Source: a virus
Reading direction: 5' to 3' (one strand)
Length of the DNA stretch: 64,000 nt
IMG/VR virus record: IMGVR_UViG_3300009149_000032
Coordinates: 1 to 64,000 of that record
This document shows, one piece after another, positions 18,106 through 48,607 of the stretch. A program made the translations under genes and the position numbers. Within the stretch, counting starts at the first letter, position 1, and each line of letters starts with the position of its first letter. A model generated the notes under the pieces. That model searched no databases, was not told where the DNA came from, and saw only the letters and a program-made list of their open reading frames with translations.

Positions 18106-18134
18106 TTGACAATAGTCTATGTATGTGGTATAAT
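18106..18134 (+). promoter_or_regulatory. Perfect-consensus promoter for the helicase operon
   Basis: TTGACA (18106-18111), a 17-base spacer and TATAAT (18129-18134), with an extended TGG, lie between the polymerase stop and the helicase start. An AAGGAG ribosome site follows. Confidence 0.88.
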
Positions 18135-24747: not shown

Positions 24748-24775
24748 TTGACAAGTCACAGTTTTGCATTATAAT
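24748..24775 (+). promoter_or_regulatory. Consensus promoter for the primase gene
   Basis: TTGACA (24748-24753) and TATAAT (24770-24775) are separated by 16 bases. Transcription would begin near 24782, so the ATG at 24787 would be almost leaderless. This supports the downstream start at 24811. Confidence 0.8.
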
Positions 24776-33000: not shown

Positions 33001-33914
33001 AGCGCACTAGACCAAAGCGAATGAGAAAAAAAGATAAGTCTGCTTATCTCGTTGATGGTGCAGGAAACCTTGTTAGAGGAAGCGGTCCACTTCCGACTCG
33101 AACAAATTATAGAGTACCTAAAGTAAACATGAAGCAGTTCTCTAAGAAAGATCCAAACCGTTCTATCTTTGTTTGGGTTAATACTTTTAACCGTCCAGAG
33201 GATCTCAAATGTTTACTGGGTGATATTTATAAGAACAAACGAGATCACAAGATAAAAGTTCTGGTTGTTGATGATGCTAGTACAGAAGATTACGATACAA
33301 CTCTGGATTCCTTCGCCGGGAAGTTGAATATCGAATATCATAAAATGGATCAAAACCACGGCAAGAAAAAGTATTGGAAACTCTGCACCTACGCTATGAA
33401 TGAAATCAAAGAGAATTCTGGATACGATTACTACGTTAAGATAGATGACGACGGTAGATTGGTTAATGGATTCTTTGATCGCTGCTGCAATATCTGGGAA
33501 AGTATAACTGATGTACGAAAGGTTTGTTTGAACTTCCGTCTGGATAGTAGAGAGGGTAAAGAGGTTTGGACTAATACCAGACCTGTCCTTGAGCAGCACG
33601 GAGGTATCAGCGTATATAAATCTCAGTGGGTTGATATGGATTTCTTCACAACTATCAATTTCTTCTCAGCACTCAGGTACAGACTCAATAAACCACCAGA
33701 TTCGAGATGGAGAAATCCTTGCGTATCTAGTGGAACCGGAAGTGATATAAGTAGGAGACTCACATCACTTGGCTATCATTTGTTTCTCACAACTCAATCT
33801 CTAGTCAAGCATGACGAGCATAATTCAAAAATGAATCCTAAAGAACGTGCAAAGAATCCTCTCATAACAAAACCTTTCACTGACAAAAATTATGGAGTTC
33901 GTAAAAATGGCTAA
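32997..33914 (+). CDS. GT-A family glycosyltransferase
   Basis: The 305-residue protein has a basic N-terminal extension (1-50), then a GT2-like domain: 'FVWVNTFNRPEDLKC', 'KVLVVDDASTEDYD', 'YYVKIDDDGRL' and 'KSQWVDMDFFTTINFF'. The last element is shared with the gene at 31709 ('TQWVDMNFVF'), so the two are probably paralogues. It is translated from an ATGA overlap. The sugar and acceptor are unknown. Confidence 0.68.
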   Translation: MKRTRPKRMRKKDKSAYLVDGAGNLVRGSGPLPTRTNYRVPKVNMKQFSKKDPNRSIFVWVNTFNRPEDLKCLLGDIYKNKRDHKIKVLVVDDASTEDYDTTLDSFAGKLNIEYHKMDQNHGKKKYWKLCTYAMNEIKENSGYDYYVKIDDDGRLVNGFFDRCCNIWESITDVRKVCLNFRLDSREGKEVWTNTRPVLEQHGGISVYKSQWVDMDFFTTINFFSALRYRLNKPPDSRWRNPCVSSGTGSDISRRLTSLGYHLFLTTQSLVKHDEHNSKMNPKERAKNPLITKPFTDKNYGVRKNG

Positions 33915-34611
33915 AGTTTATTTCGGAATGGCAACGTATCCTCCTCGAAAGAAATGTCTTAAGGAAGTCATTCCTAATATTCTACCGCAGTGTACTAAAC
34001 TTTTTGTATACCTGAATAAGTATACAGACGTTCCTAAGATTCTCATTCATCCAAAGATAAAAGTTATTATGGCAGAGAAGGAAGGTGAGTGTGGAGACAT
34101 TGGTAAGTTTCATTTCGTAGACAAGGTAGACGGATACTACTTTACTGTCGATGACGATCTAGTCTATCCTCCAAATTATGCACAGAGAATGATGAGAGCG
34201 GTTGATCATTACAGGCAACGTGCAGTCATAGGGGTTCATGGTTGTGTTCTCAATACGAGAAACATGTGGAACTACTATCGTTCCCGCAGTCTGACCAATT
34301 ATAGAGCAGCACTTGCTAAGGAAAAGAATGTTCATATCATCGGTACAGGCACAGCAGCATTCCACACTAGCACTCTAAAGATATCTAGAAAGTCTTTCCC
34401 TGTGGAAAACATGGCAGACATTTGGTTTGCAATTGAAGGTCAGAAGCAAAGAGTTCCTTTCATTTTAATATCACGACCTATGCGTTGGGTAAATGATTGT
34501 GCTACTGCCCCGCAGACTACTTCTATCTATCGTAAGAGTAAGAATAAAAGTCACGGTAAATACCAAACGAAAGTCATAAAAGAATATGGAAACTGGAAGA
34601 TCATCTCCTAA
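33907..34611 (+). CDS. Glycosyltransferase with DDD motif
   Basis: The 234-residue protein opens with 'VYFGMATYPPRKKCLKEVI', has 'YYFTVDDDLVYPPNY' (near 78-92) as a metal-binding motif, and ends with an acceptor-side 'IWFAIEGQKQRVPFI' segment. ATG 33907 is chosen because GGAG lies nine bases upstream; another ATG lies five codons earlier. Related proteins are annotated as family 2-like transferases. Substrates are unknown. Confidence 0.65.
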   Translation: MAKVYFGMATYPPRKKCLKEVIPNILPQCTKLFVYLNKYTDVPKILIHPKIKVIMAEKEGECGDIGKFHFVDKVDGYYFTVDDDLVYPPNYAQRMMRAVDHYRQRAVIGVHGCVLNTRNMWNYYRSRSLTNYRAALAKEKNVHIIGTGTAAFHTSTLKISRKSFPVENMADIWFAIEGQKQRVPFILISRPMRWVNDCATAPQTTSIYRKSKNKSHGKYQTKVIKEYGNWKIIS

Positions 34612-35302
34612 GATAGCCATTATGGTTGTCGCTAACAATGTCTCGAAGGATGTCCTTAAACGATTCCTCTGGGCATGTGAGAAGTCTGAAAAGGTTTTAC
34701 CTTTCGATGTTATAGTTGGGAACCATAGAGAACCTGAACAGAAGTTTCACAAGACTGTTATCTTGAATGATATGCTCCGCTCGTATAAAGGTAAGTACGA
34801 AGTATTGGTACAGACTGATATTGATATGCTAGTTCCACCTCGATTGATTACTGATACGTATAGATACTGTCTACGATCCAACGATTGCTACCACTGCAAT
34901 TATTATTTGATTGAACCTAAGGAACTTAAAGATAAACTCTACAAAGATATACCTTGGAATAAAATTCAACAGAGGCAAGTCAGGGCAGCATCGGGATCTT
35001 GGAACGGTCTATGTTCTAGAATGTGGAGCGAGTCTGGTGGATTCTGTGAAGCGATTTCTCTCTTAGGTGGTCCTGACTCAGAGTTCTATATGAGAACAAG
35101 GAAGAAAAATATCAGGTGGTATATCACAAGTAAGTTTGTATTAGATCACGTAAATCATCCGAGAAGAAAGGTTAAGAAGCAAGGTAAGAAGAATTTAAGT
35201 ATTGCTAGAAAGTATCCTCGTGATTACAATTGGCTAAAGAATCGTAACAACAATGTTGGTTCAACTAAGATTAAGATTTATTCTTTTAGGGGTAACAAGT
35301 GA
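34586..35302 (+). CDS. Glycosyltransferase, tandem family copy 1
   Basis: The 238-residue protein shares its layout with the next two genes: 'AIMVVANNVSKD', 'VLVQTDIDMLVPPRLI' (DxD near 93), 'SWNGLCSRMWSESGGF' and 'DSEFYMRTRKKNIRW'. The latter resembles the C-terminal galactosyltransferase domain seen in two-domain GT2/GT7 enzymes. The gene overlaps the previous one by 26 bases. Tandem duplication is evident from the motif order; each copy may add a sugar to a different acceptor. Confidence 0.65.
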   Translation: METGRSSPKIAIMVVANNVSKDVLKRFLWACEKSEKVLPFDVIVGNHREPEQKFHKTVILNDMLRSYKGKYEVLVQTDIDMLVPPRLITDTYRYCLRSNDCYHCNYYLIEPKELKDKLYKDIPWNKIQQRQVRAASGSWNGLCSRMWSESGGFCEAISLLGGPDSEFYMRTRKKNIRWYITSKFVLDHVNHPRRKVKKQGKKNLSIARKYPRDYNWLKNRNNNVGSTKIKIYSFRGNK

Positions 35303-35973
35303 AGAAGAAGAAGAAGAAGAAGAAGAAAGATATAGCCATAATCGTAGCAGCAAAAGGAATCGATCCTGCGTGGGTTGATCGGTTCAAGGATAGCATTGTA
35401 AAGTCTAATCCTAAACACTCAGTCGATATCATGATCGGGCAAGGTAAGGATAAGAAGTTTTACAAGACGAGAATTATAAATCACCTTATCAGAAAATGTA
35501 TGCCGCTATACAAAGTTATTATCCAGACTGATATCGATTTACTAATTCCTCCCCTTCTAATTGACAGAACTTACAGAGCGTTAATGAATCAACCTAACAA
35601 TGGATTCCATCATCACTTGAGATACATTGAACCAGAGGAAGTCAAAGGAAAGGCATATAAAGATTATCCTTGGTACAGGTGGGTTAATCTTAAATCATCC
35701 TTCTGTTCTGGTTGTTGGAATGGTATGTTAAGTAATACTTGGGCAAAGAGTAGAGGGTACAACGAAGATATGTTTGCTTGGGGTAGTGAAGACACGGAGT
35801 TCTACAACCGATCCAGAAGACTTGGTATTCGGTGGATCAACTGCAAAGATCTTGGTCTAGTTCATATCAGTCACCCACGAAGAACAAAGCGCAGAGCGCA
35901 AGAGAATTTTAAACTTGGCAATATGTACTCCGATAAAACAAATTGGTTAACCGGCGATCTTCATAAAAAATAG
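35299..35973 (+). CDS. Glycosyltransferase, tandem family copy 2
   Basis: This 224-residue paralogue has 'AIIVAAKGIDP', 'VIIQTDIDLLIPPLLI' (DxD near 78), 'GCWNGMLSNTWAKSRGYNED' and 'SEDTEFYNRSRRLGIRW'. It begins at GTG (AGGGG upstream, overlapping the previous stop) and its N-terminus is a run of nine lysines encoded by an AAG repeat, which is unusual. Function is as for its neighbours; substrate unknown. Confidence 0.65.
   Translation: MKKKKKKKKKDIAIIVAAKGIDPAWVDRFKDSIVKSNPKHSVDIMIGQGKDKKFYKTRIINHLIRKCMPLYKVIIQTDIDLLIPPLLIDRTYRALMNQPNNGFHHHLRYIEPEEVKGKAYKDYPWYRWVNLKSSFCSGCWNGMLSNTWAKSRGYNEDMFAWGSEDTEFYNRSRRLGIRWINCKDLGLVHISHPRRTKRRAQENFKLGNMYSDKTNWLTGDLHKK
35302..35328 (+). repeat. AAG trinucleotide repeat encoding poly-lysine
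   Basis: Nine consecutive AAG codons follow the GTG start of the copy 2 glycosyltransferase. Length change by whole units would alter the Lys tract without shifting the frame. Confidence 0.8.
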
Positions 35974-35982
35974 GAGTGTAGT

Positions 35983-36645
35983 ATGAAGAAGGTAGCAATA
36001 ATGGCAGTGGCACAAAACATCCCACTGGAAACTAGGAATAGATTCTCAGAAAGTATTCGCTTGTCGAACCCTTCAGTATCATGTGATGTGTATCTTCTTG
36101 GAGCAAAGAAACCTCGGAAGAAGAAACAACCATTTAACAAGTCGAAACTTCTTAACAAGGGAATAAAAAAGTTAGTCCCTTTGGGATACGATGTAATCAT
36201 TCAAGCAGATATTGATCTGATAGTTCCTCCGGGACTTATAGACAAGACATACGAGATTGCAATGAGTAAGCGTATCTGTTTCTATAATTGCCACAGACGT
36301 ATCGACCCTGTAGATCTTCCTAATCTTCCTTCCGATTACAGTTCAATGGATTGGAAGAAGTATATGTCGTTTAAGTGGGAAGCAGCAAACGGTTGTTGGA
36401 ATGGGTTGCAGGGAAAGTATTGGATGGATACTGGTGGATACAACGAAGATATGATTGAATGGGGTAAAGAGGATGACGATTGGAGAAGACGAGCAGCAAA
36501 GTTTGGGAAGATTCCTTTTAAGAACTGGAATAAATTCTGTCTCATACATTACAATCACGAAATAAGAACTAAGGATTTCAGAAAGCGAAACAGACAATGT
36601 GAAATCCGTAGCCTTAATAAGGGGAAGTGGAATTGGCTAACGTAG
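35983..36645 (+). CDS. Glycosyltransferase, tandem family copy 3
   Basis: The 220-residue third copy keeps the same order: 'AIMAVAQNIPLET', 'VIIQADIDLIVPPGLI' (DxD near 76), 'GCWNGLQGKYWMDTGGYNED' and 'GKEDDDWRRRAAKFGKI'. The start is a clear ATG after AGGAG. The three copies differ enough to be old duplications. Substrate unknown. Confidence 0.65.
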   Translation: MKKVAIMAVAQNIPLETRNRFSESIRLSNPSVSCDVYLLGAKKPRKKKQPFNKSKLLNKGIKKLVPLGYDVIIQADIDLIVPPGLIDKTYEIAMSKRICFYNCHRRIDPVDLPNLPSDYSSMDWKKYMSFKWEAANGCWNGLQGKYWMDTGGYNEDMIEWGKEDDDWRRRAAKFGKIPFKNWNKFCLIHYNHEIRTKDFRKRNRQCEIRSLNKGKWNWLT

Positions 36646-37358
36646 TTTTCGGACCATACCTCACGAAGAGACTTAAGTTTCATCAACACGATTCCTCCAA
36701 TGGTGGTAAGGGTGGAGCGAAACCCAATGACTATAACCAAATGAAGAATTGGTATGAGAGTGTTAAGAAATGCAATCTCAACGGAGTTATCTTACACAAT
36801 GAATGCTCCCCGGAATTCATCAAGAAGTTTTCAACAGAGAAGATATCATTCTTTAACTGGGAAAAGAAACACAGACCTTCTTATAATGATGAAAGATTCT
36901 ATGCGTACCACGAGTATCTAGTATGTCATCCTAAGGTTGAGAGAGTATTCTTCACAGACCTTTTCGATGTTAGGTTCTGTGCTAATCCATTTAAACTTAT
37001 GGAGAAGAATCCTGAACATGATTTATTCTTTGGTGAAGAGTTGATGAGTAAGTCAAGTTCGAGATGGATGGTTAGGAAGTGTAGAGAGATGAAGTTGCAA
37101 TTGATTACTGGTGGGTATCATCCCGGTCAAGTAATATACAATGCAGGAATCATCGGAGGTAAGCGAAAGCATATTCTCAATCTCTTGATAGATATGAAAT
37201 CTATTTTCGATAAGATACATCCAAGATATAATGCGAATATGCCTGTCTTCAATTTCGCTGCATCTAGAACTCCGAGTAAAATCTTTAGTGGTCCTCCGCT
37301 GCATAATAAATTCAGGTCCAACAAAGTTCCAGAGGGAACTTATATCAAACATAAGTAG
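36633..37358 (+). CDS. Putative glycosyltransferase
   Basis: The roughly 241-residue protein has a probable metal site in 'RVFFTDLFDVRF' (near 104-115) and 'NAGIIGGKRKHILNLL' (near 168-183), patterns seen in nucleotide-diphospho-sugar transferases. The start is uncertain: TTG 36633 lies eight bases after GGGG, whereas GTG 36627 lies too close to the same signal. It overlaps copy 3 by about 13 bases. Substrate unknown. Confidence 0.55.
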   Translation: MANVVFGPYLTKRLKFHQHDSSNGGKGGAKPNDYNQMKNWYESVKKCNLNGVILHNECSPEFIKKFSTEKISFFNWEKKHRPSYNDERFYAYHEYLVCHPKVERVFFTDLFDVRFCANPFKLMEKNPEHDLFFGEELMSKSSSRWMVRKCREMKLQLITGGYHPGQVIYNAGIIGGKRKHILNLLIDMKSIFDKIHPRYNANMPVFNFAASRTPSKIFSGPPLHNKFRSNKVPEGTYIKHK

Positions 37359-37366
37359 GAGAGCAT

Positions 37367-38167
37367 ATGAATATTGTAAATCTATTACCCAAGCATTTCA
37401 TTGAGCATGAATACTTTAACATTATGTACAAGCACTTCGATCCAAAAGTATTTGAAGGTAAGACTATCTATGCATCTCATAATTATAACGAACTTCCTAG
37501 CTACGGAAGAAACGTTATCGCCATACTGACTGCAGGTAATGAGAGAGCAATCCCTCCGAAGTATAAGGACAAGGTTGGTCTTGTATTCAAACATCATCTG
37601 AACGCTAACAATGTAGGGAATGTCTATCATATTCCTCTCACATACGTACAGGGATTCAATGCAACAGATGCTATACCGATACTCAAGAGAAAATATGATG
37701 TAGTATTCATTGGTAGAACCTGCAAGAGAAAAGATATGTGGACAAACGCTTTGCAGTGGAGAGATAGAAACCCCTCCAAGAATTGTCTCCTGATTGATTC
37801 TGGTCAGAGATTCATGGGAGTTAAGGGTGGTATGGGAATCAAAAAGTATTCAGAGTATATGAAAGACGCTAAGATTGTTTTGAGTCCTAAGGGAATGGTT
37901 CGTGCTGAGTGTCTCCGATTCTCTGAGGCAGTTAAGGTTGCTAGTGCTATTGTCGCTTGCCCTCACCCTATGAAGGTAAGATCATTTAAGAACTGCCCTG
38001 CATCCTACGTAACTAACTGGAATGAACTGGGAGGTATTCTGGATTCTTATACAGATGAGAAGTTACAAAGGGTACACAATAAAATGAAACTCTGTTGGAG
38101 AGACTACTTCTCTCCTGAGTCTATCGGAAAGTATATCTCAAAGGTAACTAAATCGATCCTATGCTAA
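37367..38167 (+). CDS. Exostosin-like/GT-B glycosyltransferase
   Basis: The 266-residue protein resembles the C-terminal donor-binding half of GT-B exostosin-like enzymes. Supporting segments are 'YDVVFIGRTCKRKDMW' (near 110), 'YSEYMKDAKIVLSPKG' and 'RFSEAVKVASAIVACPHP' (near 185-202). It differs in fold from the GT-A neighbours, so it likely adds another linkage to the same glycan. It starts at ATG after AGGAG and its end overlaps the sulfotransferase gene. Confidence 0.6.
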   Translation: MNIVNLLPKHFIEHEYFNIMYKHFDPKVFEGKTIYASHNYNELPSYGRNVIAILTAGNERAIPPKYKDKVGLVFKHHLNANNVGNVYHIPLTYVQGFNATDAIPILKRKYDVVFIGRTCKRKDMWTNALQWRDRNPSKNCLLIDSGQRFMGVKGGMGIKKYSEYMKDAKIVLSPKGMVRAECLRFSEAVKVASAIVACPHPMKVRSFKNCPASYVTNWNELGGILDSYTDEKLQRVHNKMKLCWRDYFSPESIGKYISKVTKSILC

Positions 38168-38745
38168 GAATAATACAAGTACGAATACCAAAGACTGCTA
38201 CGACTTCTATTGAAGCGGCACTTAAGTTTATGAGGAATAAGAATCTCTTAACCCTTAAACCACATGGTCACGACCAAACTCCTGCAATACTTAGACAGTA
38301 CACAGCAGAAGTGAAAAAGAAAGCAATAGTGCTTGCCTCTGTCCGTAATCCTTTTGATAGATTGGTCAGTGCATATCAATACATTGTCCAGTTCAAAAAG
38401 GATAAGAGGAATAAAGAGTTGAAGTATGTTTTCGATTATCCATCCTTCAGGGACTTCGCAATTGATCTCCCCAAGATATTCGAGAAGAATCAATTCTTTC
38501 ATCCTCATACGAGATGGTTGTATAATGGAGAGAAGAAACTCTACAATTTTCTCATTCGATATGAATCACTTGAGGGAGATTGGAATAGATTCCTTAAGGA
38601 ATATAAGTTATCACCTATGCCTCTACCAGTACAGCGGAAGACAAAGAGGAAGAGTTGGAGAAATTATTATGACGATGAGAGTATGAAGGTAGTTCACAAA
38701 GTTTACGAGGAAGACTTTAGGAGGTTAAAATACGATGGCAATTAG
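38161..38745 (+). CDS. PAPS-dependent sulfotransferase (copy 1)
   Basis: The 194-residue protein carries both PAPS-binding elements of family 2 sulfotransferases. The 5'-phosphosulfate loop is 'VRIPKTATTSIEAAL' (7-21) and the 3'-phosphate site is 'LASVRNPFDRLVSAYQY' (about 58-74). It would move sulfate from PAPS to a carbohydrate hydroxyl. PAPS must come from the host. Sulfotransferases are rare in phages, and this one lies among glycosyltransferases. The ribosome site is weak; the ATG overlaps the previous stop. Confidence 0.75.
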   Translation: MLRIIQVRIPKTATTSIEAALKFMRNKNLLTLKPHGHDQTPAILRQYTAEVKKKAIVLASVRNPFDRLVSAYQYIVQFKKDKRNKELKYVFDYPSFRDFAIDLPKIFEKNQFFHPHTRWLYNGEKKLYNFLIRYESLEGDWNRFLKEYKLSPMPLPVQRKTKRKSWRNYYDDESMKVVHKVYEEDFRRLKYDGN

Positions 38746-39319
38746 TCCTGCTAATATAGATCTTATACCACAAGGAGTAAAATTTCTTGGAGTAACGTTC
38801 AAGGATGTTTGGGTTGGTGAACTTGGTAATATAAATATTCGCCAATTAAAATGTACAGCAAAGTCGTGGTTCAAGAAGAAAGGTTCTAAGCATACAAGTT
38901 TTGATATCAATGGTAAGGATGGAGCGATTGCTGTAGATCTATGCAAACCAATCCCTGACAAGTATAAGAACAAGTTCAATATGGTTACGAACTTTGGTAC
39001 AACTGAACACGTTGAAGATCAGACACAGGTATTCAGAAACATACACGATATGACCACAGTGGGTGGAGTTATGATTCATTCTGTTCCCCTTCATGGTTAC
39101 TGGAAAGGTCATTGTCCATTTCGATACACAGCAAAGTTTCCTCCAATGCTTTCAGGATTGAATGGATACTCACTTAAGTTTCAAGAGATAAGGGATAGGT
39201 GGAAAGAAAAGCTATTGAATTTTATCGTACAGAAAACCAGTAATGAATTCGTGGCGATAGATCTTTCTGCTATCACCGTATCAAAAAAATACAAGAAGAA
39301 TACAGACAATTTGTTTTAG
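38735..39319 (+). CDS. Class I methyltransferase-like protein
   Basis: The 194-residue protein has the second half of a type 11 methyltransferase pattern: 'NMVTNFGTTEHVEDQTQVF' (near 89-107) followed by 'VGGVMIHSVPLHGYW'. A normal Gly-rich SAM loop is not clear at the N-terminus, so the enzyme may be divergent or inactive. GGAGG lies ten bases upstream of the ATG. Position suggests methylation of a sugar in the same pathway. Confidence 0.55.
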   Translation: MAISPANIDLIPQGVKFLGVTFKDVWVGELGNINIRQLKCTAKSWFKKKGSKHTSFDINGKDGAIAVDLCKPIPDKYKNKFNMVTNFGTTEHVEDQTQVFRNIHDMTTVGGVMIHSVPLHGYWKGHCPFRYTAKFPPMLSGLNGYSLKFQEIRDRWKEKLLNFIVQKTSNEFVAIDLSAITVSKKYKKNTDNLF

Positions 39320-39327
39320 GATACACC

Positions 39328-40092
39328 ATGATTAATCTTTATGCTGCTAAGTGGATCAAGACTGTCAGAAACTTTGGCGATACTGTAAATCCATTTCTTG
39401 TAACCTCGCTCACTGGGAAACCTTCTCAATTCACATTGAATAGGAAAGTGAAAAGGTATATGGTTTCTGGGAGCGTTCTCCACCACGCAGATAAGAATTG
39501 CGAAGTCTGGGGTTCAGGGTTGATATCATACAACGCCATACCAATCCGCAAGCCAAAAGTATTCTATGCTGTGAGGGGTCCGAGGACTCATCTCATGCTG
39601 AAGGAACATAGGATAGTTACTCCAGAAGTTTACGGAGATCCTGTCTTACTTTTCCCTCGCATATATAATCCTACTGTAGAAAAGAAATATGAGGTAGGAA
39701 TTATCCCACACTATGCTGATAAAGATTCTTTGTGGGTTAAGAAAGTTTCTAAAAACAAAAATGTTAAGGTAATAGATATACAACATAAGAACTTTAAAGA
39801 AATGATTAACGATGTATTGAGTTGTAACATAATCCTATCCAGTTCGCTTCACGGAGTTGTAATTGGAGACGCTTACAATGTTCCTTCACACTGGATAAGT
39901 TTATCAGAGAAGGTTAAGGGTAAGGGTTTTAAGTTCGCTGACTACTATGCTTCTGTAAATAGATTCTGTTTTCTAAGAACTGTATCAGAAGAAACTCGTC
40001 TGAGTAGTATCCTTAACGGTTTTGATAATTACGAAGTCGATATAGATTTAGAACCTCTCATAAAGTCTTGTCCGTTTGGAGAAATCAAATGA
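39328..40092 (+). CDS. Polysaccharide pyruvyltransferase
   Basis: The 254-residue protein matches the CsaB/WcaK-type pyruvyltransferase family. Its segments are 'NFGDTVNPFLV' (N-terminal), 'VWGSGLIS', 'YAVRGPRTHLML', 'VYGDPVLLFP', 'VGIIPHYADKD' and 'IILSSSLHGVVIGDAYNVP' (near 170-190). These enzymes add pyruvate ketals to surface polysaccharides using phosphoenolpyruvate. It gives the island an acidic, non-sugar modification beside sulfate. The stop overlaps the next start by ATGA. Confidence 0.78.
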   Translation: MINLYAAKWIKTVRNFGDTVNPFLVTSLTGKPSQFTLNRKVKRYMVSGSVLHHADKNCEVWGSGLISYNAIPIRKPKVFYAVRGPRTHLMLKEHRIVTPEVYGDPVLLFPRIYNPTVEKKYEVGIIPHYADKDSLWVKKVSKNKNVKVIDIQHKNFKEMINDVLSCNIILSSSLHGVVIGDAYNVPSHWISLSEKVKGKGFKFADYYASVNRFCFLRTVSEETRLSSILNGFDNYEVDIDLEPLIKSCPFGEIK

Positions 40093-41262
40093 AGATAGTA
40101 AGTTTCTATCATGACGTAGCGAGTAAGAAGTATTTTTTATGACCACTCAATAAGATTAACAAAGCAGTGTAAGTCTCTCGGATTAGACTACCACATTGTT
40201 CACAGAGACTTTGGTAAGTCGTGGATAGATAATGTCCGACCAATAGGAAATAGAGTTGTGTCTATACTATACTACGCAAAACCTAAAGGAGTAACTTCGA
40301 GAGCGATCTATGATGAAGTGGTTGGTAGATTTTATAATCCAATCTTCTTGAATGTAACGGGGATAAGAAACATACTCAATGATATCAAACAGTACAGTCC
40401 TGAACAGATATGGGTATCCTCCGACTGTCTAGAAAGTATGTCTCACAAAGCAAGAGTGATTCGAAATATGAAAATCCCCGTTGTCAATCTAAATATAAAG
40501 GAACGGTCACAAAAGAACCACGCTATTTATAAGAGAGTCAATCAGATACTCATTGAAGCAAACCTCCCCTTAACAAAGTACAAGGGTGAGGTAAAGCCAT
40601 TATTCTTTTTAATGATTGACAAATGTATCTCTGAGTATCTAGAAGCGAATGACTCTATAAAAGATATCAACCGCAAGTATCCTCTAGTTGTTATATCGTC
40701 TGGGTTGAACCAAGCAGCAATTGAAAAGCATCTTCCTGAATGTATATTTATTGATTCGAAGAAGAACTCATTTCCACATAAGCTGAAATTATTCCTAGAG
40801 TATATCAACCATAGGAATATAAACTATAACATTGCGTTCAGATTAGATATGGATTGTATTATATTTGATGTTGAGAGATTAATTGAAATGGGTAAGTATA
40901 TTGTGGGGAGAAAAGTTCTGGTTGGTAATCTGAAAAAAGCAACAGGTTCATACGTTATAAAGTGGTTTGGTCGTCACGGAGGATATATTCGTGGTGGATG
41001 CAATATGACAACAAAGGAATCGCTAGATTCTATCAAACAGTTTAACGATGAAGATTTTAAACCGCAAGACTTTGACGCTTGCTATAATATAATTCTAGCT
41101 AGATTTGGTGTGCAACAATTAGGTCTTCCTATATTCGAATTCAATGAGAGATATCAAGGTCAGCATCCGGCATGGCACCCGATCAAGTTGAAAACTGTAG
41201 GAAGGATGGAACTCTTTAAACAGCACAACGATTTGTATAACTCACAGGAGAAAGCATCGTGA
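40089..41262 (+). pseudogene. Glycosyltransferase interrupted by a +1 shift at a T6 run
   Basis: The gene starts at ATG 40089 (ATGA overlap with the pyruvyltransferase). The first 16 codons then hit a TGA just after a T6 run at 40133-40138. Removing one T joins this start to the long frame that runs to 41262 and gives a continuous 390-residue protein. The missing bridge reads 'YFYDHSIRLTKQCKSLGLDY' and continues to 'RVVSILYYAK'. The downstream part has a DxD in 'FRLDMDCIIF' and 'GGYIRGGCNM', typical of nucleotide-sugar transferases. A sequencing error, a real mutation, phase variation or programmed +1 shifting could each explain it. Confidence 0.8.
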
Positions 41263-41891
41263 AGCAACTAAAGGTGGATTCATATAAAGAGTATGTTAAA
41301 CTTCAGACCAAAGGTAATAAAGCGAAGTTGAAGAAGAATAAAAATCTTCACGGTATTAAGAATGAAGAGATTGATTTCGTTACGAAGTATGTTAAAAAGA
41401 ATATCCCAGAGGCAACGTTTGGGATCTGCCACGGTGTACGAAATGGTTGGGAAGTTTGTGAACTTCGAAAATCTCTTGACATAGATATTATCGGGACAGA
41501 CATATCATCGACAGCAGTAGAGTTTGAACATGTTATCCAACACGACTTCCATAAGATTAAACCTGAGTGGTTGGGTAGCGTTGATTTTATTATGACAAAC
41601 TCACTAGATCATTCTTATGACCCTGCAATGGCTATTGACCAGTGGATGAGTTGTGTTAAAGATACAGGAAGGTTATTTCTTATCTGGATGAAAACACACA
41701 ACGAAAGTTTCCTCCGAGAAGGAAGCGATGATCTCTTCGGTGCGAATAGACCTGAGTATAAAGATTTGATTGAGAAGAAGTATTGTCTTGAAGAGATGAA
41801 ACCTATTCGAGTTCTCAACCACGGAGTCCGTTATATATTTATAGTTAAACATAGGAGAGAATCTAATGGCAATGGTATCGAAGTCTCATAA
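41259..41891 (+). CDS. Class I SAM-dependent methyltransferase
   Basis: The 210-residue protein has a SAM-binding pattern: motif I-like 'FGICHGVRNGWEV' (near 54-66), acidic 'DIIGTDISSTAVE' (near 76-88) and 'VDFIMTNSLDHSYDPAMAID' (near 108-127). It probably methylates a small molecule or sugar. It starts at GTG behind AGGAG, overlapping the previous stop, and overlaps the following sulfotransferase gene by 26 bases. Acceptor unknown. Confidence 0.6.
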   Translation: MKQLKVDSYKEYVKLQTKGNKAKLKKNKNLHGIKNEEIDFVTKYVKKNIPEATFGICHGVRNGWEVCELRKSLDIDIIGTDISSTAVEFEHVIQHDFHKIKPEWLGSVDFIMTNSLDHSYDPAMAIDQWMSCVKDTGRLFLIWMKTHNESFLREGSDDLFGANRPEYKDLIEKKYCLEEMKPIRVLNHGVRYIFIVKHRRESNGNGIEVS

Positions 41892-42540
41892 ATTTATCTA
41901 CGTATCCGGTGGTAGGAACGCCACTGGTGCTGTCAAGGGTGCGCTTGTAAAGATCCCCGGTCTTGATTACTTTGAACCTGCCAAGAAGAACAAAGGTGAT
42001 TGGAGAAAGTTTAACAAGCATATGCCTGCAAGACATATCAAACGAGCAATCTCTGCAGATGTTTGGAACAAGTCATTCAAGTTTACCTTTGTGCGTAACA
42101 CATACAGTTGGGTTGTATCCTCATTCTTCTTCTGGGTAAAGATCGGTATGCGACCTATGCCTAAGAATAAAATTATGACAATGGATGATTTCAAGTTCGC
42201 TGTGAAGTATTACAGATCTCCTCAGGGTAGAAGACATGATGAGTGTTCAGACATACGCTCACAGCATTCATTCATCTGTAGTAAGGATGGATATATTCTT
42301 TTGGACTTCGTAGGTCACTTCGAGAACCTCCAGAAAGATTTCGATGAGATATGTACCCACATTGAAATCAAACCGATCCCTCTGACTGTACAGAACTCTT
42401 CTGCTGCGTCTCAACATAAGAAACACTCGACGGGTATTCATTGGAGTGAACACTACAAGAGTAATGCAAATGCTCAAGACTATATCTATAAACATTGGAA
42501 GAGAGATATAGACGCATTCAAATTTAAGTTGGAGAAGTAA
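41866..42540 (+). CDS. Sulfotransferase family protein (copy 2)
   Basis: The 224-residue protein follows the carbohydrate sulfotransferase pattern. The N-terminal loop 'FIYVSGGRNATGAVKGAL' (near 10-27) is divergent from the usual PKTGTTS form, the 3'-phosphate site is 'FTFVRNTYSWVVSSFFFW' (near 69-86), and a late 'DFVGHFENLQKDFDEIC' (near 145-161) is typical of family 2. It is not closely similar to copy 1. It would add a second sulfate or act on another acceptor. Starts after GGAG. Confidence 0.65.
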   Translation: MAMVSKSHKFIYVSGGRNATGAVKGALVKIPGLDYFEPAKKNKGDWRKFNKHMPARHIKRAISADVWNKSFKFTFVRNTYSWVVSSFFFWVKIGMRPMPKNKIMTMDDFKFAVKYYRSPQGRRHDECSDIRSQHSFICSKDGYILLDFVGHFENLQKDFDEICTHIEIKPIPLTVQNSSAASQHKKHSTGIHWSEHYKSNANAQDYIYKHWKRDIDAFKFKLEK

Positions 42541-43127
42541 TGGCAAAGATATTTTTAGATCTCGGTGTCCATAATGGGCAGACATTAGAGATGGGTATCA
42601 AAACTTATCCTCACTTCGATAGGTTCATTGGAATCGAACCTGTAACATCATTATGTGAAAAAGCTATTGGTAGATGTAGTGCATATAAAGATAAGAACAT
42701 AAAGGTTTATAATATAGCTTTGGATAGTCTGAGTGTTCTGAAAAAGACGATAACATTTTATGAGGATACAAGCAAAGGTAATCATCAACTAGGTTCCTCA
42801 CTCTTCTCGGACAAGACTATGAGAACTAATAAGAAAGTGGAAGTAATGTGTTGGGATGTGAATCATTTCTTTAGAACCAACTTCAAGGATAATGATCAGG
42901 TCGTAATGAAGATTGACGTTGAAGGTGCTGAATACAGGATCTTTGATGCACTGATTACCTCAGGACTCCTCAAGAAGCACGTTATAAAAATCTTTGCTGA
43001 GTGGCACTGGAACAAAGTACCCTCAATAAGCAAGGATGAACACAACAGAATTCTTATTGCCCTCAACAAATTAGGCTATAACCTCAAAGGTAAGAGCAAG
43101 TTAGATGAATTTTATAATGGATTTTAA
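42540..43127 (+). CDS. FkbM-family methyltransferase (copy 1)
   Basis: The 195-residue protein has FkbM-type motifs: 'FLDLGVHNGQT' (5-15), 'RFIGIEPVTSLC' (near 28-39) and 'VVMKIDVEGAEYRIFDAL' (near 120-137). FkbM enzymes O-methylate sugars or related hydroxyls. The ATG shares one base with the preceding stop. It closes the 30958-43127 glycan run; a new promoter follows directly. Confidence 0.75.
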   Translation: MAKIFLDLGVHNGQTLEMGIKTYPHFDRFIGIEPVTSLCEKAIGRCSAYKDKNIKVYNIALDSLSVLKKTITFYEDTSKGNHQLGSSLFSDKTMRTNKKVEVMCWDVNHFFRTNFKDNDQVVMKIDVEGAEYRIFDALITSGLLKKHVIKIFAEWHWNKVPSISKDEHNRILIALNKLGYNLKGKSKLDEFYNGF

Positions 43128-43149: not shown

Positions 43150-43178
43150 TTGACAATCCCGCCAGATTCAGATATAAT
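43150..43178 (+). promoter_or_regulatory. Perfect-consensus promoter
   Basis: TTGACA (43150-43155) and TATAAT (43173-43178) are separated by 17 bases in the short gap after the FkbM gene. It opens the RNA ligase/PARP block. Confidence 0.88.
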
Positions 43179-43206: not shown

Positions 43207-43464
43207 ATGCAAATACGTTGCTATAGGTTCTGGATAACATTACTACCTCTATTCCTCGTGCTTGTACTGGCATTGTCTGCTCTCGGTGGTCATGCCGTGT
43301 ATCAATATGGGTATTTCTCCGGTAGACAAAGGGGATATCCAGAAGGTTGGTTTGACAGGCATATGCGAGATGATTTTGCTAAGAAGATTTTCTGTGGTCA
43401 GTATTGGAAGTATGTAGAATCGCTTTGTCACTCTGACCAAGTTAGGAGAGAAGAGAAATGGTAA
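43207..43464 (+). CDS. Small membrane protein
   Basis: The 85-residue protein has one strong hydrophobic segment near the N-terminus (about residues 8-28, rich in Leu and Val) and a charged, aromatic C-terminal part. ATG 43207 is chosen because GGGAG lies five bases upstream; an ATG at 43195 has no ribosome site. It overlaps the RNA ligase start by seven bases. Function is unknown; an inner-membrane position is inferred. Confidence 0.6.
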   Translation: MQIRCYRFWITLLPLFLVLVLALSALGGHAVYQYGYFSGRQRGYPEGWFDRHMRDDFAKKIFCGQYWKYVESLCHSDQVRREEKW

Positions 43465-44501
43465 TCGAATTCAAAAAGTATAGTTCAATTGAAAATGTCA
43501 GTCGTACTAAAACTATTAATGCTATCACTGAGCAAGGTCTTAATGACGCTCACACAGTTTGGACAGTATCCGAAAAGATTCACTGTTCAAACTTCTCACT
43601 CTACATAACCTCATCCGAAATCAAAGCAGCAAAGAGATCAAGTTTCCTCGGCGTTGGTCAGAACTTCTTCAACTTCGAAGATGTTCTCGACGAGCATCTT
43701 GATCGGTTGAAACTTCTTTTCGTATTCACTACAGAACTATATGACATTGAACCTGACAAGTTGGAGATAATTCTCTACGGAGAACTCTTCGGAGGTACGT
43801 ATCCACACGATGATGTTGCGCCTGTAGCAGGAGCAACAAAGGTACAGAGGGGTGTATACTATTCCCCATTCAATACTTTCTATGCGTTTGATATGAAAGT
43901 GAATGGTGGAATCATTAATATAGAAGTCTTTGAAGAGTTGATGGAGCAGGTTGGTTTCATCCATGCAAAGAGTCTTTTCAGAGGTATACTTGAAGAATGT
44001 CTCGCATACCCTAACGAATTCCAAACAACCCTCCCGGCAGCATTCGGACTCCCAAAGATTGAGAATAACATTTGCGAGGGAGTTGTAATCAAACCCATAG
44101 TCGCAAAGTATTTCGGATCTGGTAGTCGTGTGATTCTCAAGAATAAGAATGAGAAGTTCGCAGAGATTGCAAACGAGAGCAGACCTAAGAAGGAAAGGGT
44201 TCCAGTTGATATCTCTATGTCTGAAGAGGAAGACGCTCTCTACCAGACTGCTCTTGCTTACGTGACTAAGAATAGACTCTGTAATGTTATCTCAAAGATA
44301 GGAGAGATTACAGATAAGATGTTTGGTAAGTTGCAGGGAATGTTTATGAAGGATGTAATGGAAGACTTTAGAAAGGATCATGGAGAAGCGTGGGATGCTC
44401 TTGAGAAGAAGAGAGCAAAAGTTATTCAGGTCAATCTTAATAATCACGTTAAGGAATTGGTTCGTGAAAACTTCCTTGACATTATTGACGGAACATTTTA
44501 G
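43458..44501 (+). CDS. rnlB: RNA ligase 2 (Rnl2-type)
   Basis: The 347-residue protein aligns in pattern with T4 Rnl2: 'FKKYSSIEN' at the start, motif I 'SEKIHCSNFSL' with nucleotidyl Lys40, 'ILYGELFGG' (near 105), 'EGVVIKP' (near 210) and 'ILKNKNEKFAE' (near 227). The C-terminal helical domain includes 'NRLCNVISKIGEI', almost as in T4. It seals nicks in double-stranded RNA or RNA-DNA hybrids, probably repairing RNAs cut by host defences. Motif I has HC where T4 has HG. Confidence 0.9.
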   Translation: MVIEFKKYSSIENVSRTKTINAITEQGLNDAHTVWTVSEKIHCSNFSLYITSSEIKAAKRSSFLGVGQNFFNFEDVLDEHLDRLKLLFVFTTELYDIEPDKLEIILYGELFGGTYPHDDVAPVAGATKVQRGVYYSPFNTFYAFDMKVNGGIINIEVFEELMEQVGFIHAKSLFRGILEECLAYPNEFQTTLPAAFGLPKIENNICEGVVIKPIVAKYFGSGSRVILKNKNEKFAEIANESRPKKERVPVDISMSEEEDALYQTALAYVTKNRLCNVISKIGEITDKMFGKLQGMFMKDVMEDFRKDHGEAWDALEKKRAKVIQVNLNNHVKELVRENFLDIIDGTF

Positions 44502-45184: not shown

Positions 45185-45514
45185 ATGATTCGCAAGCAAA
45201 CGGTATATACAGAAACGGTTGGTGAAGGTGAGGAGATGGAAATCCGTATGGTCACAGCAGACGAAGCGATTGATATCGAAGATTCAAGTATGTTCGCCGG
45301 TCATGCGCTCATAGGAATCCAAACTCCTCAAGGTACAATTGAACAACCGATTCGTTTCGGAATCTTTGGTGCAGTTGATATTCGAGATGCATTTGCTAAG
45401 TTCGAAGAGGCAAGAGCAACGGAAGCACCGAAGGAAGCAAAGAAGATTGTCGATGCTATAAAAGAGCAGTTTGAAGCAGAGCAGAAAAAGATCTTGGTTC
45501 CCGGCAGGAGATAA
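45185..45514 (+). CDS. Unknown small protein
   Basis: The 109-residue protein starts at ATG 45185 behind AGGGG, just after the SEC-C gene stop. It has a beta-rich first half and a charged helical C-terminal half (Glu/Ala/Lys-rich). No family is recognised. It lies directly before the PARP gene. Confidence 0.55.
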   Translation: MIRKQTVYTETVGEGEEMEIRMVTADEAIDIEDSSMFAGHALIGIQTPQGTIEQPIRFGIFGAVDIRDAFAKFEEARATEAPKEAKKIVDAIKEQFEAEQKKILVPGRR

Positions 45515-45517
45515 AGA

Positions 45518-46825
45518 ATGTCAGATATTGTTCTTGATAAAATGTTTGTTTGTACTGACTCAGGGTATGGAAAAATTGGTCACAATAAATATTGGTCTGT
45601 AAAAGTTTTCACCGATGGTAGAATGGAAACCGAGTACGGAAGAGTTGGAGATCCCGGAGCAAGTACAACAAAGGATTTTGGTAATGAAGCTACAGCATTG
45701 AAGAAAGCAAATCAGTTAATCAAGAAAAAAGAAAAAGGTAAAGCGAGGAAGGATGGGAAGGGAAGAGACTCGCAGTACAAAGAGGTAGAGATTATCGGAA
45801 AGGTTTCGTCTTCTAATGGAGCGAAGTCCGTAGGCAGATCAGCTTGGAAGACAATCGCCAAAGGTGATACTGAAGTTGAATCCCTTATCTCACTTCTCGA
45901 CAGAGAGAATATTCATAACATTACCAGTGGTACAACTCTGACATACGATGAGCATACAGGACTCTTCTCTACTCCTCTGGGAGTTGTAGGACAGAATAGT
46001 ATCGACTCAGCCAGAGTTGTGCTTTCAAAAATGAAAGACTTGGTAGAGAAAAAGAAATTTGGTAAGGAGGGTGATAAGATTGCCGAAGAGTTCATGATGA
46101 TCATCCCCCAGAATATAGGTAGGAGAAAAAGACCAACACTTCAAACAATCTGTCCTACTCTTGATAAGTTAGAAGAACATAATTCGATTCTAGATTCACT
46201 TCAAGCTAGTCTTGATATTGTATTGACTCCTAAAGATACTCCTGATGATAAGGATGAGGTGGAAGACTTTGGCGTAACACTGTCTCTTATGAATGATAAA
46301 AAAGAATTTGATAGGCTTGTTAAGTTCTACGGAAGCACTAAGAGATCACAACACGTTTGTCACCACCTTTCGATGCAAAGAATTTTCTCTGTTGAACACA
46401 AAGATATGAATAAACAATTTGAAATCAAAGGTGAGAATATAGGAAATGTTCAAGAGCTTTGGCACGGAACCAGAATTGGTAATATACTTTCAATCCTTGC
46501 AAAGGGAATGCATATCCCACCTTCGTCTGCCTCGCATTGCACTGGAAGACTCTATGGAGATGGTCTTTATTTTAGTGATCAGTCAACCAAGAGTCTAAAT
46601 TATTCTTATGGATACTGGTCAGGCAATAGAAACAATCACTGCTTTATGTTTCTATTCGATGTGGCAATGGGGAAATCTTATACACCGTCTGGAGGTATAA
46701 AAAGTATTCCAAGCGGATATGATTCTTGCTTCGCAAAAGCAGGGAATTCTGGGGTAAGAAACAACGAAATGATTGTATATAAATCGTTTCAATGCCGCCC
46801 GAAATATCTTATAGAATTTAAATAA
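45518..46825 (+). CDS. WGR-domain poly(ADP-ribose) polymerase-like protein
   Basis: The 435-residue protein has an N-terminal WGR domain (about 20-85; 'YWSVKVFTDGRMETEYGRVG'), a helical linker, and a C-terminal PARP catalytic domain (about 300-435). The H-Y-E triad appears intact: His in 'LWHGTRIGNIL' (near 316), Tyr in 'GDGLYFSDQSTKS' (near 350) and Glu in 'NNEMIVYKSFQCRPKYLIEF' (near 416). WGR domains sense DNA breaks in eukaryotic PARP1-3. It would transfer ADP-ribose from NAD to protein or nucleic acid. Zinc fingers and BRCT are absent, as in small PARP2-like enzymes. Starts after AGGAG. Confidence 0.88.
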   Translation: MSDIVLDKMFVCTDSGYGKIGHNKYWSVKVFTDGRMETEYGRVGDPGASTTKDFGNEATALKKANQLIKKKEKGKARKDGKGRDSQYKEVEIIGKVSSSNGAKSVGRSAWKTIAKGDTEVESLISLLDRENIHNITSGTTLTYDEHTGLFSTPLGVVGQNSIDSARVVLSKMKDLVEKKKFGKEGDKIAEEFMMIIPQNIGRRKRPTLQTICPTLDKLEEHNSILDSLQASLDIVLTPKDTPDDKDEVEDFGVTLSLMNDKKEFDRLVKFYGSTKRSQHVCHHLSMQRIFSVEHKDMNKQFEIKGENIGNVQELWHGTRIGNILSILAKGMHIPPSSASHCTGRLYGDGLYFSDQSTKSLNYSYGYWSGNRNNHCFMFLFDVAMGKSYTPSGGIKSIPSGYDSCFAKAGNSGVRNNEMIVYKSFQCRPKYLIEFK

Positions 46826-46829
46826 ACTC

Positions 46830-46858
46830 TTGACATTCTTATAAGGATCAGTTATAAT
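46830..46858 (+). promoter_or_regulatory. Perfect-consensus promoter
   Basis: TTGACA (46830-46835) and TATAAT (46853-46858) are separated by 17 bases immediately after the PARP stop. The ATG overlapping the -10 cannot be used from this transcript, which leaves a leader of about 90 bases. Confidence 0.85.
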
Positions 46859-46952
46859 GTATGTAATACTTGATAGATATTATAAACCGAGGATGGTTCA
46901 TAACTTTTTCAGCATTGAACCTTATCCACCAGAAGACACGAAGGAGAATCAA

Positions 46953-47444
46953 ATGGGACTTGGACTTGAATCACTGAAGAACATTGTTAACAAAGAGGTT
47001 GCTTTGAAGATTGCAATGGAAGAACAATTCACAGCATATGATATCACTAAAGCGATTCGTGAGTATATCAAATATGATTTTGCCCACGACGATAGTAGAG
47101 ACTTTGTTCACGCTCTTCTTGACGATAAAGATGGTGTCCTTGTCAAGAACAGTTATGTTAAGACTTCTATGAGACTTCCAACTGGTGTACATGCATTTGT
47201 ATTTCATGACGAATTCACAGACCCAGAAGATTATGTTGCTAACATGAAAGTTGATAATACTTACACTCCTGACTCCACCCTCGCTGCAGACTCACAAGTC
47301 TGTATTGATAACTTGAGAGAAGACTTTGATGACCTCCGCAACATCGCTTTAGAAGTAGTCTCTTGTTATCGTAACGATAGCCTAGAGGAACTTTCAGAAT
47401 CAATCAAGGATCTTGAAAGCACATTGAAGAATATTTGTAATTAA
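46953..47444 (+). CDS. Unknown protein
   Basis: The 163-residue protein has no recognised family. It is acidic, helical at both ends, with a central beta-rich stretch ('RLPTGVHAFVFHDEF'). ATG 46953 follows AAGGAG with six-base spacing. A longer in-frame reading from 46857 would begin inside the -10 box of the promoter. It sits between the PARP and DNA ligase genes. Confidence 0.65.
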   Translation: MGLGLESLKNIVNKEVALKIAMEEQFTAYDITKAIREYIKYDFAHDDSRDFVHALLDDKDGVLVKNSYVKTSMRLPTGVHAFVFHDEFTDPEDYVANMKVDNTYTPDSTLAADSQVCIDNLREDFDDLRNIALEVVSCYRNDSLEELSESIKDLESTLKNICN

Positions 47445-47467: not shown

Positions 47468-48607
47468 ATGATGACAAAGACATTTCCAAAGTTGTATAAG
47501 AAATCCTCCACTGGAAAGATTTCTGAGTGGGAACTTATCGTTGAAGAATCTAATAAAGGTTCTGGTGTAATTAAAATCACCCACGGTTATTCTGACGGTA
47601 AGAAACAGGAAGACCTTAAAGTGATTGAAGAAGGTAAGAACGCCGGGAAAGAGAACGAGACTACAGCACTTGAACAGGCAATTGCGCAAGCAGAGAGTAA
47701 GTATAAGAAACAACTCGACAAGGGATACGTCGATTCGATGGATGATGTTGACAAAGTTCTTTATCTTCCTATGCTTGCACACTCCTATGATAAGCGTGGT
47801 AAGGATATTAAGTTCCCTTGTATCGCTCAGAGAAAGTTTGATGGAGTCCGTTGTCTTGCTACTGTTGAGAATGGTAAGGTAGTTCTTAAATCTCGCAAAG
47901 GAAAAGTGTTCCCTCATATGGAACATCTTCACGATCAAGTCAAGACTCTTATTGAATCCACCACCGGAGAACTTATCCTTGATGGTGAACTTTACTCAGA
48001 GACATTGACCTTCCAGAGAACTGTAGGTCTTGTCAAGAGAGTTACCTTGAAGGAAGGTGATGAAGGGGATTCAAGACAGATCATGTTCCGTCTTTACGAT
48101 TGCATCTTCCCAGATAATCCTACCGCTGCTTTCATGACTCGCTACAACTTCCTTGACAATCTTCTCAAGCGTAGAACAAACTTCGCTCACCTCAAGTTGA
48201 CTGAGAACTTCACTGTCAGAGATGAGAAAGCAATGAAAGAGCTTCACGATGTATTTGTTCAAGAGGGGCACGAGGGGATTATTTTAAGAAATATCAAAGG
48301 TATTTATGGAGTTAACAAACGCTCCAAGGATCTCCAGAAGTATAAACATTTTCTCGATGACGAGTTTGAAGTGGTTTCGTTTACCGAAGGAGTGGGTCGA
48401 GCCAAGGGAACAGTTATTTGGACGTGCAAAACTAAAGAAGATAAAGAGTTTAATGTTAGACCTAGAGGAACCGAACAAGAGCGAAGAAATTGGTTTGAAA
48501 ATGGAGAGAAATATATAGGAAAAATGATCACTGTGAGGTATTTTGAAATGACAGATGATAATATTCCTCGCTTCCCAGTCGGTTTAGTTTTTCGAGATTA
48601 TGAATAA
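47468..48607 (+). CDS. ATP-dependent DNA ligase with WGR-like N-terminal domain
   Basis: The 379-residue protein has a WGR-like N-terminal domain (about 8-88; 'WELIVEE', 'IKITHGYSDGKKQ', 'GKNAGKENETT.LEQA'). A nucleotidyltransferase core follows with motif I 'RKFDGVR' (Lys123), 'LDGELY' (near 167), 'EGIILRN' (near 268) and 'LQKYK' (near 288), then an OB domain. It seals nicks in duplex DNA using ATP. The N-terminal domain probably helps locate nicks. Two adjacent ATGs behind GGGAG make the exact start uncertain by one codon. Confidence 0.85.
   Translation: MMTKTFPKLYKKSSTGKISEWELIVEESNKGSGVIKITHGYSDGKKQEDLKVIEEGKNAGKENETTALEQAIAQAESKYKKQLDKGYVDSMDDVDKVLYLPMLAHSYDKRGKDIKFPCIAQRKFDGVRCLATVENGKVVLKSRKGKVFPHMEHLHDQVKTLIESTTGELILDGELYSETLTFQRTVGLVKRVTLKEGDEGDSRQIMFRLYDCIFPDNPTAAFMTRYNFLDNLLKRRTNFAHLKLTENFTVRDEKAMKELHDVFVQEGHEGIILRNIKGIYGVNKRSKDLQKYKHFLDDEFEVVSFTEGVGRAKGTVIWTCKTKEDKEFNVRPRGTEQERRNWFENGEKYIGKMITVRYFEMTDDNIPRFPVGLVFRDYE

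What the first reader, a model, noticed from the sequence alone, without database searches (positions are those of the whole stretch)
45518..46825. Phage-encoded PARP with a WGR domain and intact H-Y-E triad
WGR plus PARP catalytic domain is the architecture of eukaryotic break-sensing PARPs. T4 uses unrelated-looking Alt and Mod enzymes for ADP-ribosylation. A WGR-PARP here suggests DNA-nick-activated ADP-ribosylation during infection, either to redirect host proteins, mark DNA ends or consume NAD.
Basis: partly seen in the sequence, partly recalled or inferred. Interest (0 to 1): 0.8.

Follow-up and report, generated by a model that had tools for sequence, protein, structure and literature searches.

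The report
Phage PARP with nick-sensing domain
A large uncultured phage carries an apparently intact relative of the human DNA-damage enzymes PARP1/2, a kind already known from phages and bacteria, and across dozens of phages it tends to sit beside a previously unnamed DNA-binding protein, sometimes beside a DNA ligase, in genomes that often encode ADP-ribose erasers.

Summary
Confirmed: window 45518-46825 (+) encodes a 435-aa WGR / PARP regulatory helical (HD) / PARP catalytic protein, the human PARP2/3 core layout. H316-Y351-E417 are invariant in 48 of 48 non-redundant phage PARPs, and the WGR residues matching PARP2's 5'-phosphate-nick contacts are largely kept. The architecture is not only eukaryotic: bacterial three-domain PARPs make PAR in a DNA-dependent way (PMC5966428, PMC4245714), and phage PARPs are in print (PMC1266365, PMC4245714, PMC7824862, PMC9503650). 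So: new member of a known kind.

New here is context. A family absent from Pfam and PHROGs (HYP: winged helix plus AbrB-like domains) lies downstream in 24 of 48 PARP loci and in 0 of 26 PARP-less control phages. A DNA ligase lies within about 4 kb in 8 loci, sometimes non-orthologous; the window's ligase has a divergent WGR-like N-terminus. ADP-ribose erasers (macro or ARH) are enriched in PARP phages.

Best reading: a nick-activated ADP-ribosyltransferase acting at DNA ends during infection. Activity, targets and benefit to the phage are untested.

The parts
45518..46825 (+). PARP gene, 435 aa: WGR + helical regulatory domain + catalytic domain
   Evidence: SD AGGAG at 45506-45510
45554..45751 (+). 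WGR domain (Pfam residues 13-78). PARP2 nick contacts map as N129>N23, K130>K24, W151>Y40, R153>R42, K183>K71, Y201>Y87 (just past the Pfam edge); N127>G21 (Gly in PARP1 too)
   Evidence: PARP2 residues from PMC8190142. The K183 match rests on the multiple alignment; pairwise phmmer places K75 there
45935..46204 (+). PARP regulatory helical domain (residues 140-229)
   Evidence: PF02877 32.4 bits, cut-off 26.8
46298..46822 (+). PARP catalytic domain (residues 261-435); triad codons H316 46463-46465, Y351 46568-46570, E417 46766-46768
   Evidence: PF00644 3.5e-30; triad invariant in 48/48
46953..47444 (+). HYP gene (likely start; longest ORF 46857-47444). N-terminal winged-helix-like domain; this copy and its sister L110 lack the C-terminal AbrB half present in most of the family
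   Evidence: SD GAAGGAG before ATG 46953
47468..48607 (+). ATP-dependent DNA ligase, 379 aa
   Evidence: PF01068 5.6e-24, PF14743 3.6e-13; ortholog next to PARP in L008
47468..47758 (+). ligase N-terminal domain: divergent WGR-like, homologous to the ASFV ligase N-terminal domain
   Evidence: hhalign to phage WGR 93% probability, E 2.9e-7, HD/ART controls below 0.5%; relatives L108/L090 hit Pfam WGR E 9e-4/3e-3, below cut-off; ASFV ligase 6IMJ E 3e-7
46830..46858 (+). perfect sigma-70 promoter (TTGACA-17-TATAAT) between PARP and HYP
   Evidence: 5 perfect sites in the window, 0.11 expected
43150..43178 (+). perfect sigma-70 promoter at the head of the gene run that ends with PARP
   Evidence: a perfect site also lies upstream in sister L110
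43458..44501 (+). T4 RNA ligase 2-like gene in the same run as PARP; also upstream of PARP in sister phage L025/L110
   Evidence: PF18043 1.5e-24, PF09414 1.7e-17

Best explanation
It is a phage-encoded PARP of the PARP1/2/3 (clade 1) type, and most likely works as a DNA-break-activated ADP-ribosyltransferase. The WGR domain binds a 5'-phosphorylated nick or end, this relieves the inhibitory helical domain, and the H-Y-E site then transfers ADP-ribose from NAD+ near the break. The first acceptors are probably itself, DNA-bound proteins (HYP is a candidate) or DNA ends. In the phage this most likely marks or organises breaks in phage DNA for repair and ligation, and is reversed by phage macrodomains or ADP-ribosylhydrolases where present. 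Shown here: architecture, catalytic and nick-contact residues, and gene associations. Inferred: activity, activation by nicks, acceptors, mono versus poly, and the repair role. My split: about 0.85 that it is a DNA-dependent ADP-ribosyltransferase, about 0.45 that it serves phage DNA-end handling.
For: Three PARP2/3 domains in order. Triad 48/48 and most nick contacts in at least 45/48 (PMC8190142). Bacterial three-domain PARPs of similar size make PAR in a DNA-dependent way (PMC5966428, PMC4245714). DNA ligase within about 4 kb in 8 of 54 loci, including ligases without the WGR-like N-terminus (L007, L020). Of 15 PARP phages with an ATP ligase found without a ligase query, PARP-ligase distances are shorter than random placement (combined p 8e-4; 0.003 without the sister). 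The window's ligase carries a WGR-like domain. HYP, a predicted DNA-binding protein, lies downstream on the same strand in 24/48 loci, genome-wide proximity p 7e-15, and in 0/26 PARP-less phages. Macro 15/31 versus 1/26 and ARH 8/31 versus 0/26; L013 has PARP, a 97-aa ORF, HYP and macro in a row.
Against: No activity is shown. Most PARP phages have no ligase next to the PARP, and 15 of 31 lack any PF01068 ligase over cut-off. RNA ligases and Nudix enzymes are also near PARPs, which would fit RNA repair or NAD metabolism. HYP looks like a transcription-factor-type protein, so the pair could be regulatory. Distance tests treat genomes as independent and gene positions as uniform; replication and repair genes cluster in phages. 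Controls were all ligase-positive and on average smaller genomes; limited to 350 kb the eraser excess is 8/21 versus 1/26, p 0.004. The beta4-beta5 acceptor loop is shorter than in PARP2, so polymer formation is uncertain. The only PARP structure model (single sequence) failed, pLDDT 32.
Confidence: 0.5

Rival explanations
1. Host-takeover ADP-ribosyltransferase: like T4 Alt/ModA/ModB, it modifies host transcription or translation proteins; the WGR domain makes host-genome degradation the trigger.
For: Iyer and colleagues propose this for jumbo-phage PARPs (PMC7824862). A perfect host-type sigma-70 promoter heads the PARP gene run, compatible with early expression. HYP resembles a transcription factor.
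Against: No fusion to a virion protein is seen here. T4 Alt/Mod are RSE-clade ARTs without WGR/HD (PMC9503650). DNA ligase neighbours and ADP-ribose erasers are not predicted by this reading.
Confidence: 0.22
2. DNA-end capping: the enzyme ADP-ribosylates 5'/3' phosphates at breaks or genome ends of phage DNA, shielding them from host exonucleases until macro/ARH enzymes remove the cap.
For: PARP2 is reported to modify DNA (PMC8190142) and plant PARP1/2 to modify terminal phosphates (PMC7726343). Ligase neighbours and erasers fit a reversible cap.
Against: No sequence feature separates DNA from protein acceptors; capped ends block ligation unless erased, and about 13 of 31 PARP phages show neither macro nor ARH over cut-off.
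Confidence: 0.15
3. NAD+ depletion or superinfection exclusion: DNA-triggered NAD+ consumption harms the host or a competing phage, with HYP as an AbrB/MazE-like antidote or regulator.
For: AbrB/MazE-type domains in HYP; tight PARP-HYP linkage.
Against: HYP lies downstream, has its own promoter in the window, and the window's HYP lacks the AbrB half. Lytic-type genome content; erasers are enriched. Depleting NAD+ would harm phage production.
Confidence: 0.08
4. Decayed or non-catalytic relic.
For: One relative is split into two ORFs (L132).
Against: Full-length ORF, triad 48/48, strong conservation, good ribosome-binding site.
Confidence: 0.03

Closest known systems
Phage PARPs in print: Cellulophaga phage phi4:1 and Aeromonas phage Aeh1 (PMC4245714, PMC1266365), Xanthomonas phage XacN1 BBA65562.1 (PMC7824862); also Klebsiella phage FBKp34 (GenBank note names all three domains)
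   Same: phi4:1, XacN1 and the Klebsiella/Stenotrophomonas proteins: WGR + HD + H-Y-E ART in large phages; 34-36% identity to the window for the full-length matches; phi4:1 also has PARP, one ORF, then DNA ligase
   Different: Not orthologous neighbourhoods; phi4:1's ligase lacks the WGR-like N-terminus and its intervening ORF is not HYP by profile comparison. Aeh1 was not matched at E<=1e-3
Bacterial PARPs HaPARP (Herpetosiphon aurantiacus) and CdPARP (C. difficile CD160)
   Same: WGR-PARP_reg-PARP_cat, similar size, Tyr commonest at the W of WGR; DNA-dependent PAR synthesis shown (PMC5966428, PMC4245714)
   Different: Cellular, reversed by PARG; PARG_cat_microb was found in only 2 of 31 PARP phages, macro/ARH instead
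Human PARP2 / PARP3
   Same: Domain order, triad, nick-contact residues (PMC8190142)
   Different: No N-terminal extension; shorter beta4-beta5 acceptor loop; no HPF1 partner known
T4 Alt/ModA/ModB
   Same: Phage ADP-ribosyltransferases
   Different: RSE-clade ARTs (PMC9503650) without WGR or HD
ASFV DNA ligase (6IMJ)
   Same: Homologous N-terminal DNA-binding domain in the neighbouring ligase
   Different: That domain was reported as a novel fold (PMC6344480); here it scores as divergent WGR by profile

Membership tests
Clade 1 (PARP1/2/3-type) PARP | PARP catalytic domain with H-Y-E triad | tested here: met
   PF00644 3.5e-30; triad 48/48
Clade 1 (PARP1/2/3-type) PARP | Helical regulatory domain before the catalytic domain | tested here: met
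   PF02877 32.4 bits above cut-off 26.8; continuous alignment to PARP2 and PARP1
Clade 1 (PARP1/2/3-type) PARP | WGR domain | tested here: met
   PF05406 6e-11; G41 47/48 and R42 46/48; reads Y-G-R as in most bacterial PARPs
Clade 1 (PARP1/2/3-type) PARP | Nick-contact residues of PARP2 WGR | tested here: met
   K130, R153, K183, Y201 and N129 equivalents conserved; W151 position Tyr, N127 position Gly (PMC8190142)
Clade 1 (PARP1/2/3-type) PARP | DNA-dependent NAD+ turnover / poly-ADP-ribosylation | not testable with these tools
   no biochemistry; short acceptor loop leaves mono versus poly open
Clade 1 (PARP1/2/3-type) PARP | Predicted fold matches PARP | tested here: inconclusive
   single-sequence AlphaFold2 failed, pLDDT 32; fold rests on sequence homology to solved PARP1/2
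WGR domain (for the ligase N-terminus) | Profile match to WGR | tested here: inconclusive
   hhalign 93%, controls under 0.5%; Pfam WGR below cut-off; no structure computed
T4 Alt/Mod type ART | RSE motif, no WGR/HD | tested here: not met
   H-Y-E triad and WGR/HD present

The most novel reading that the evidence does not exclude
Large phages carry a dedicated, reversible nick-signalling module: a WGR-HD PARP, a PARP-linked winged-helix/AbrB protein (HYP) not in Pfam or PHROGs, frequent macro/ARH erasers and, in several lineages, a DNA ligase, in some with its own divergent WGR domain, so that writer and sealer recognise the same nicks. This would be a phage-borne counterpart of PARP-guided single-strand break repair or end protection.
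Probability: 0.3. Interest if true: 0.75.

Novelty: new member of a known kind. Interest (0 to 1): 0.5.

Why it matters
Phage PARPs have been listed since 2005 without a role. A conserved partner gene (HYP), ligase neighbours and an eraser excess give a concrete testable hypothesis: break-activated, reversible ADP-ribosylation during infection. If true, PARP-style nick signalling also operates in phages, and such phages would offer simple experimental systems for it. The WGR-like reading of the ligase domain would also link a fold described as novel in a viral ligase (PMC6344480) to a known nick-binding domain.

Tried and rejected
Single-sequence AlphaFold2 of the PARP: pLDDT 32, unusable; the second and last job went to HYP. 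First viral-contig scan with the window PARP alone found nothing confirmed, and alignments A1 and A9 were too divergent to scan with. phi4:1 gp030 as a HYP homolog: a weak Foldseek match (E 0.065) but hhalign probability 0.7%, so rejected. L124 14671-15180 looked macro-like by eye but had no Pfam hit at 0.01 and only a PHROG 'phosphatase' hit; not counted as a macro. HYP-seeded scans found only contigs already known to carry PARP, too few to be an independent test. PARG as the usual eraser: only 2 of 31. PIN-domain hit of the ligase N-terminus (PF08745, E 0.0016) rejected: below cut-off, one member only. Ligase adjacency on the tree: the label table counts only the grouped rows (8 ligase-adjacent against 8 bacterial), so I do not use its change count; the drawn tree puts ligase-adjacent PARPs in several separate supported places.

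Full report
What is there. The ORF at 45518-46825 (+) starts at ATG with an AGGAG ribosome-binding site 7 nt upstream. Pfam finds WGR (residues 13-78, E 6e-11), PARP_reg (140-229, E 1.2e-7) and the PARP catalytic domain (from 261, E 3.5e-30), each over its curated cut-off. A single phmmer alignment to human PARP2 covers residues 20-386 (E 1.4e-21), and a profile of 12 phage relatives matches solved PARP1 chains through WGR, HD and ART (E about 1e-42).

Key residues. In 48 relatives that differ by more than about 20%, H316, Y351, E417, K358 and Y362 are invariant. PARP2 detects a 5'-phosphorylated nick with K130, W151, K183 and Y201, with R153, N127 and N129 passing the signal to the helical domain (PMC8190142). 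Using and the multiple alignment, these map to K24, Y40, K71, Y87, R42, G21 and N23. N23, K24, R42, K71 and Y87 are kept in at least 45 of 48 relatives; position 40 is W or Y in 42 of 48, and position 21 is N in 41. The K183 match is less certain. The beta4-beta5 loop is about 25 residues against about 58 in PARP2, so polymer formation cannot be assumed.

Relatives. A protein search of phage records found 15, six covering at least 80% of the query at 34-36% identity, in Klebsiella, Stenotrophomonas and Xanthomonas phages; Klebsiella phage FBKp34's GenBank note already lists all three domains. Viral-contig scans raised the set to 54 loci, 48 non-redundant at 80% identity. Bacterial relatives lie in Armatimonadota assemblies and in Variovorax, Defluviimonas, a Pseudomonas plasmid and Nocardia, without HYP or ligase in the DNA held. 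On the tree the window pairs with L110, a sister phage (100/100), and bacterial rows lie among phage rows.

HYP. The gene after PARP (ORF 46857-47444, probable start 46953) has no Pfam or PHROG match. Its family is found in 24 of 48 PARP loci, in nearly all cases downstream on the same strand (L130 has a second copy upstream). In 31 PARP phage records it is found in 19; measured against random placement in those 19 genomes its closeness to PARP has combined p 7e-15. In 26 PARP-less phages it is absent. AlphaFold2 of a full-length member gives pLDDT 86 with a three-helix/two-strand winged-helix pattern and two AbrB-like units; Foldseek gives a SpoVT/AbrB-like protein and winged-helix regulators, with modest E-values, and the profile matches B. 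subtilis AbrB (E 1.7e-4). The window's copy lacks the AbrB half.

Ligase. Third in the row is an ATP-dependent DNA ligase (47468-48607). A ligase lies within about 4 kb of PARP in window, L110, L008, L007, L020, L117, L062 and L109; the last two were found through the ligase and are not counted in the test. L007 and L020 have ligases without the WGR-like N-terminus, so the pairing is not only shared descent of one block. Among 15 genomes with a ligase, distances are shorter than random (p 8e-4, or 0.003 without L110). This assumes independence and uniform gene order and should be read as moderate evidence. The window ligase's N-terminal 97 residues are homologous to the ASFV ligase N-terminal domain (6IMJ, E 3e-7), reported as a novel fold (PMC6344480). 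Against the phage WGR profile hhalign gives 93% (E 2.9e-7) with four control segments under 0.5%, and relatives L108/L090 hit Pfam WGR just below cut-off. I call it a divergent WGR-like domain, not proven.

Erasers. Macro domains over cut-off occur in 15 of 31 PARP phages and 1 of 26 controls; ADP-ribosylglycohydrolases in 8 of 31 and 0 of 26. The controls were picked by their ligase and are smaller; up to 350 kb the combined figure is 8/21 against 1/26 (p 0.004). The sister phage has a macro domain (G010). L013 has PARP, a 97-aa ORF, HYP and a macro ORF in a row; the huge phage LR756511 has PARP, ligase, HYP and ARH within about 7 kb.

Expression. The window has five perfect TTGACA-(16-18)-TATAAT sites against 0.11 expected. 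One heads the gene run that ends with PARP, one lies between PARP and HYP. This is compatible with transcription by unmodified host polymerase, so perhaps early; that is inference.

How it most likely works. Architecture and residues say DNA-break-activated ADP-ribosyltransferase (about 0.85, by homology to PARP1-3 and to HaPARP/CdPARP, whose DNA-dependent PAR synthesis has been shown; PMC5966428, PMC4245714). Its role in the phage is inferred: ligase, DNA-binding partner and erasers point to reversible marking at phage DNA ends (about 0.45). Host takeover (0.22), end capping (0.15) and NAD+ depletion (0.08) remain.

Novelty. Phage PARPs are published (PMC1266365, PMC4245714, PMC7824862, PMC9503650). 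I found no paper among those searched that describes the HYP partner or the PARP-ligase pairing, but the library lacks most subscription journals. The enzyme is a new member of a known kind; the associations are the new information.

Noticed in passing
window 10414-10442 (-), 18106-18134, 24748-24775, 43150-43178, 46830-46858 (+): Five perfect sigma-70 consensus promoters, 0.11 expected by chance.
   Followed up: partly
window 47468-47758; L108, L090: Ligase N-terminal domain, shared with the ASFV ligase, looks like a divergent WGR domain; hundreds of viral contigs encode it.
   Followed up: partly
L132 9935-10387 and 10445-11299: A relative's PARP is split into two ORFs; frameshift, fission or assembly error not resolved.
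   Followed up: no
L020 6100-7812 and 7931-9988: TROVE/Ro60 protein and a PcfJ-like protein directly upstream of a phage PARP.
   Followed up: no
L021, L023, L120, L123, L126; window 43458-44501; L112: RNA ligases (Rnl1-, Rnl2- and PHA02142-type) recur near phage PARPs.
   Followed up: partly
L138-L145: WGR-PARP genes in Armatimonadota assemblies, Variovorax, Defluviimonas, a Pseudomonas serbica plasmid and Nocardia, without HYP or ligase in the DNA held.
   Followed up: partly
window 30958-42540: Long run of proteins that by their sequence look like glycosyltransferases, sulfotransferase-like proteins and methyltransferases (only 42540-43127 FkbM was checked).
   Followed up: no
window 6790-29779: T4-like replication and repair set: family B polymerase, DnaB-type helicase, RecA/UvsX-like, UvsW-like, ThyX, class II RNR; polymerase about 29% identical to cyanophage S-CAM3.
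   Followed up: partly
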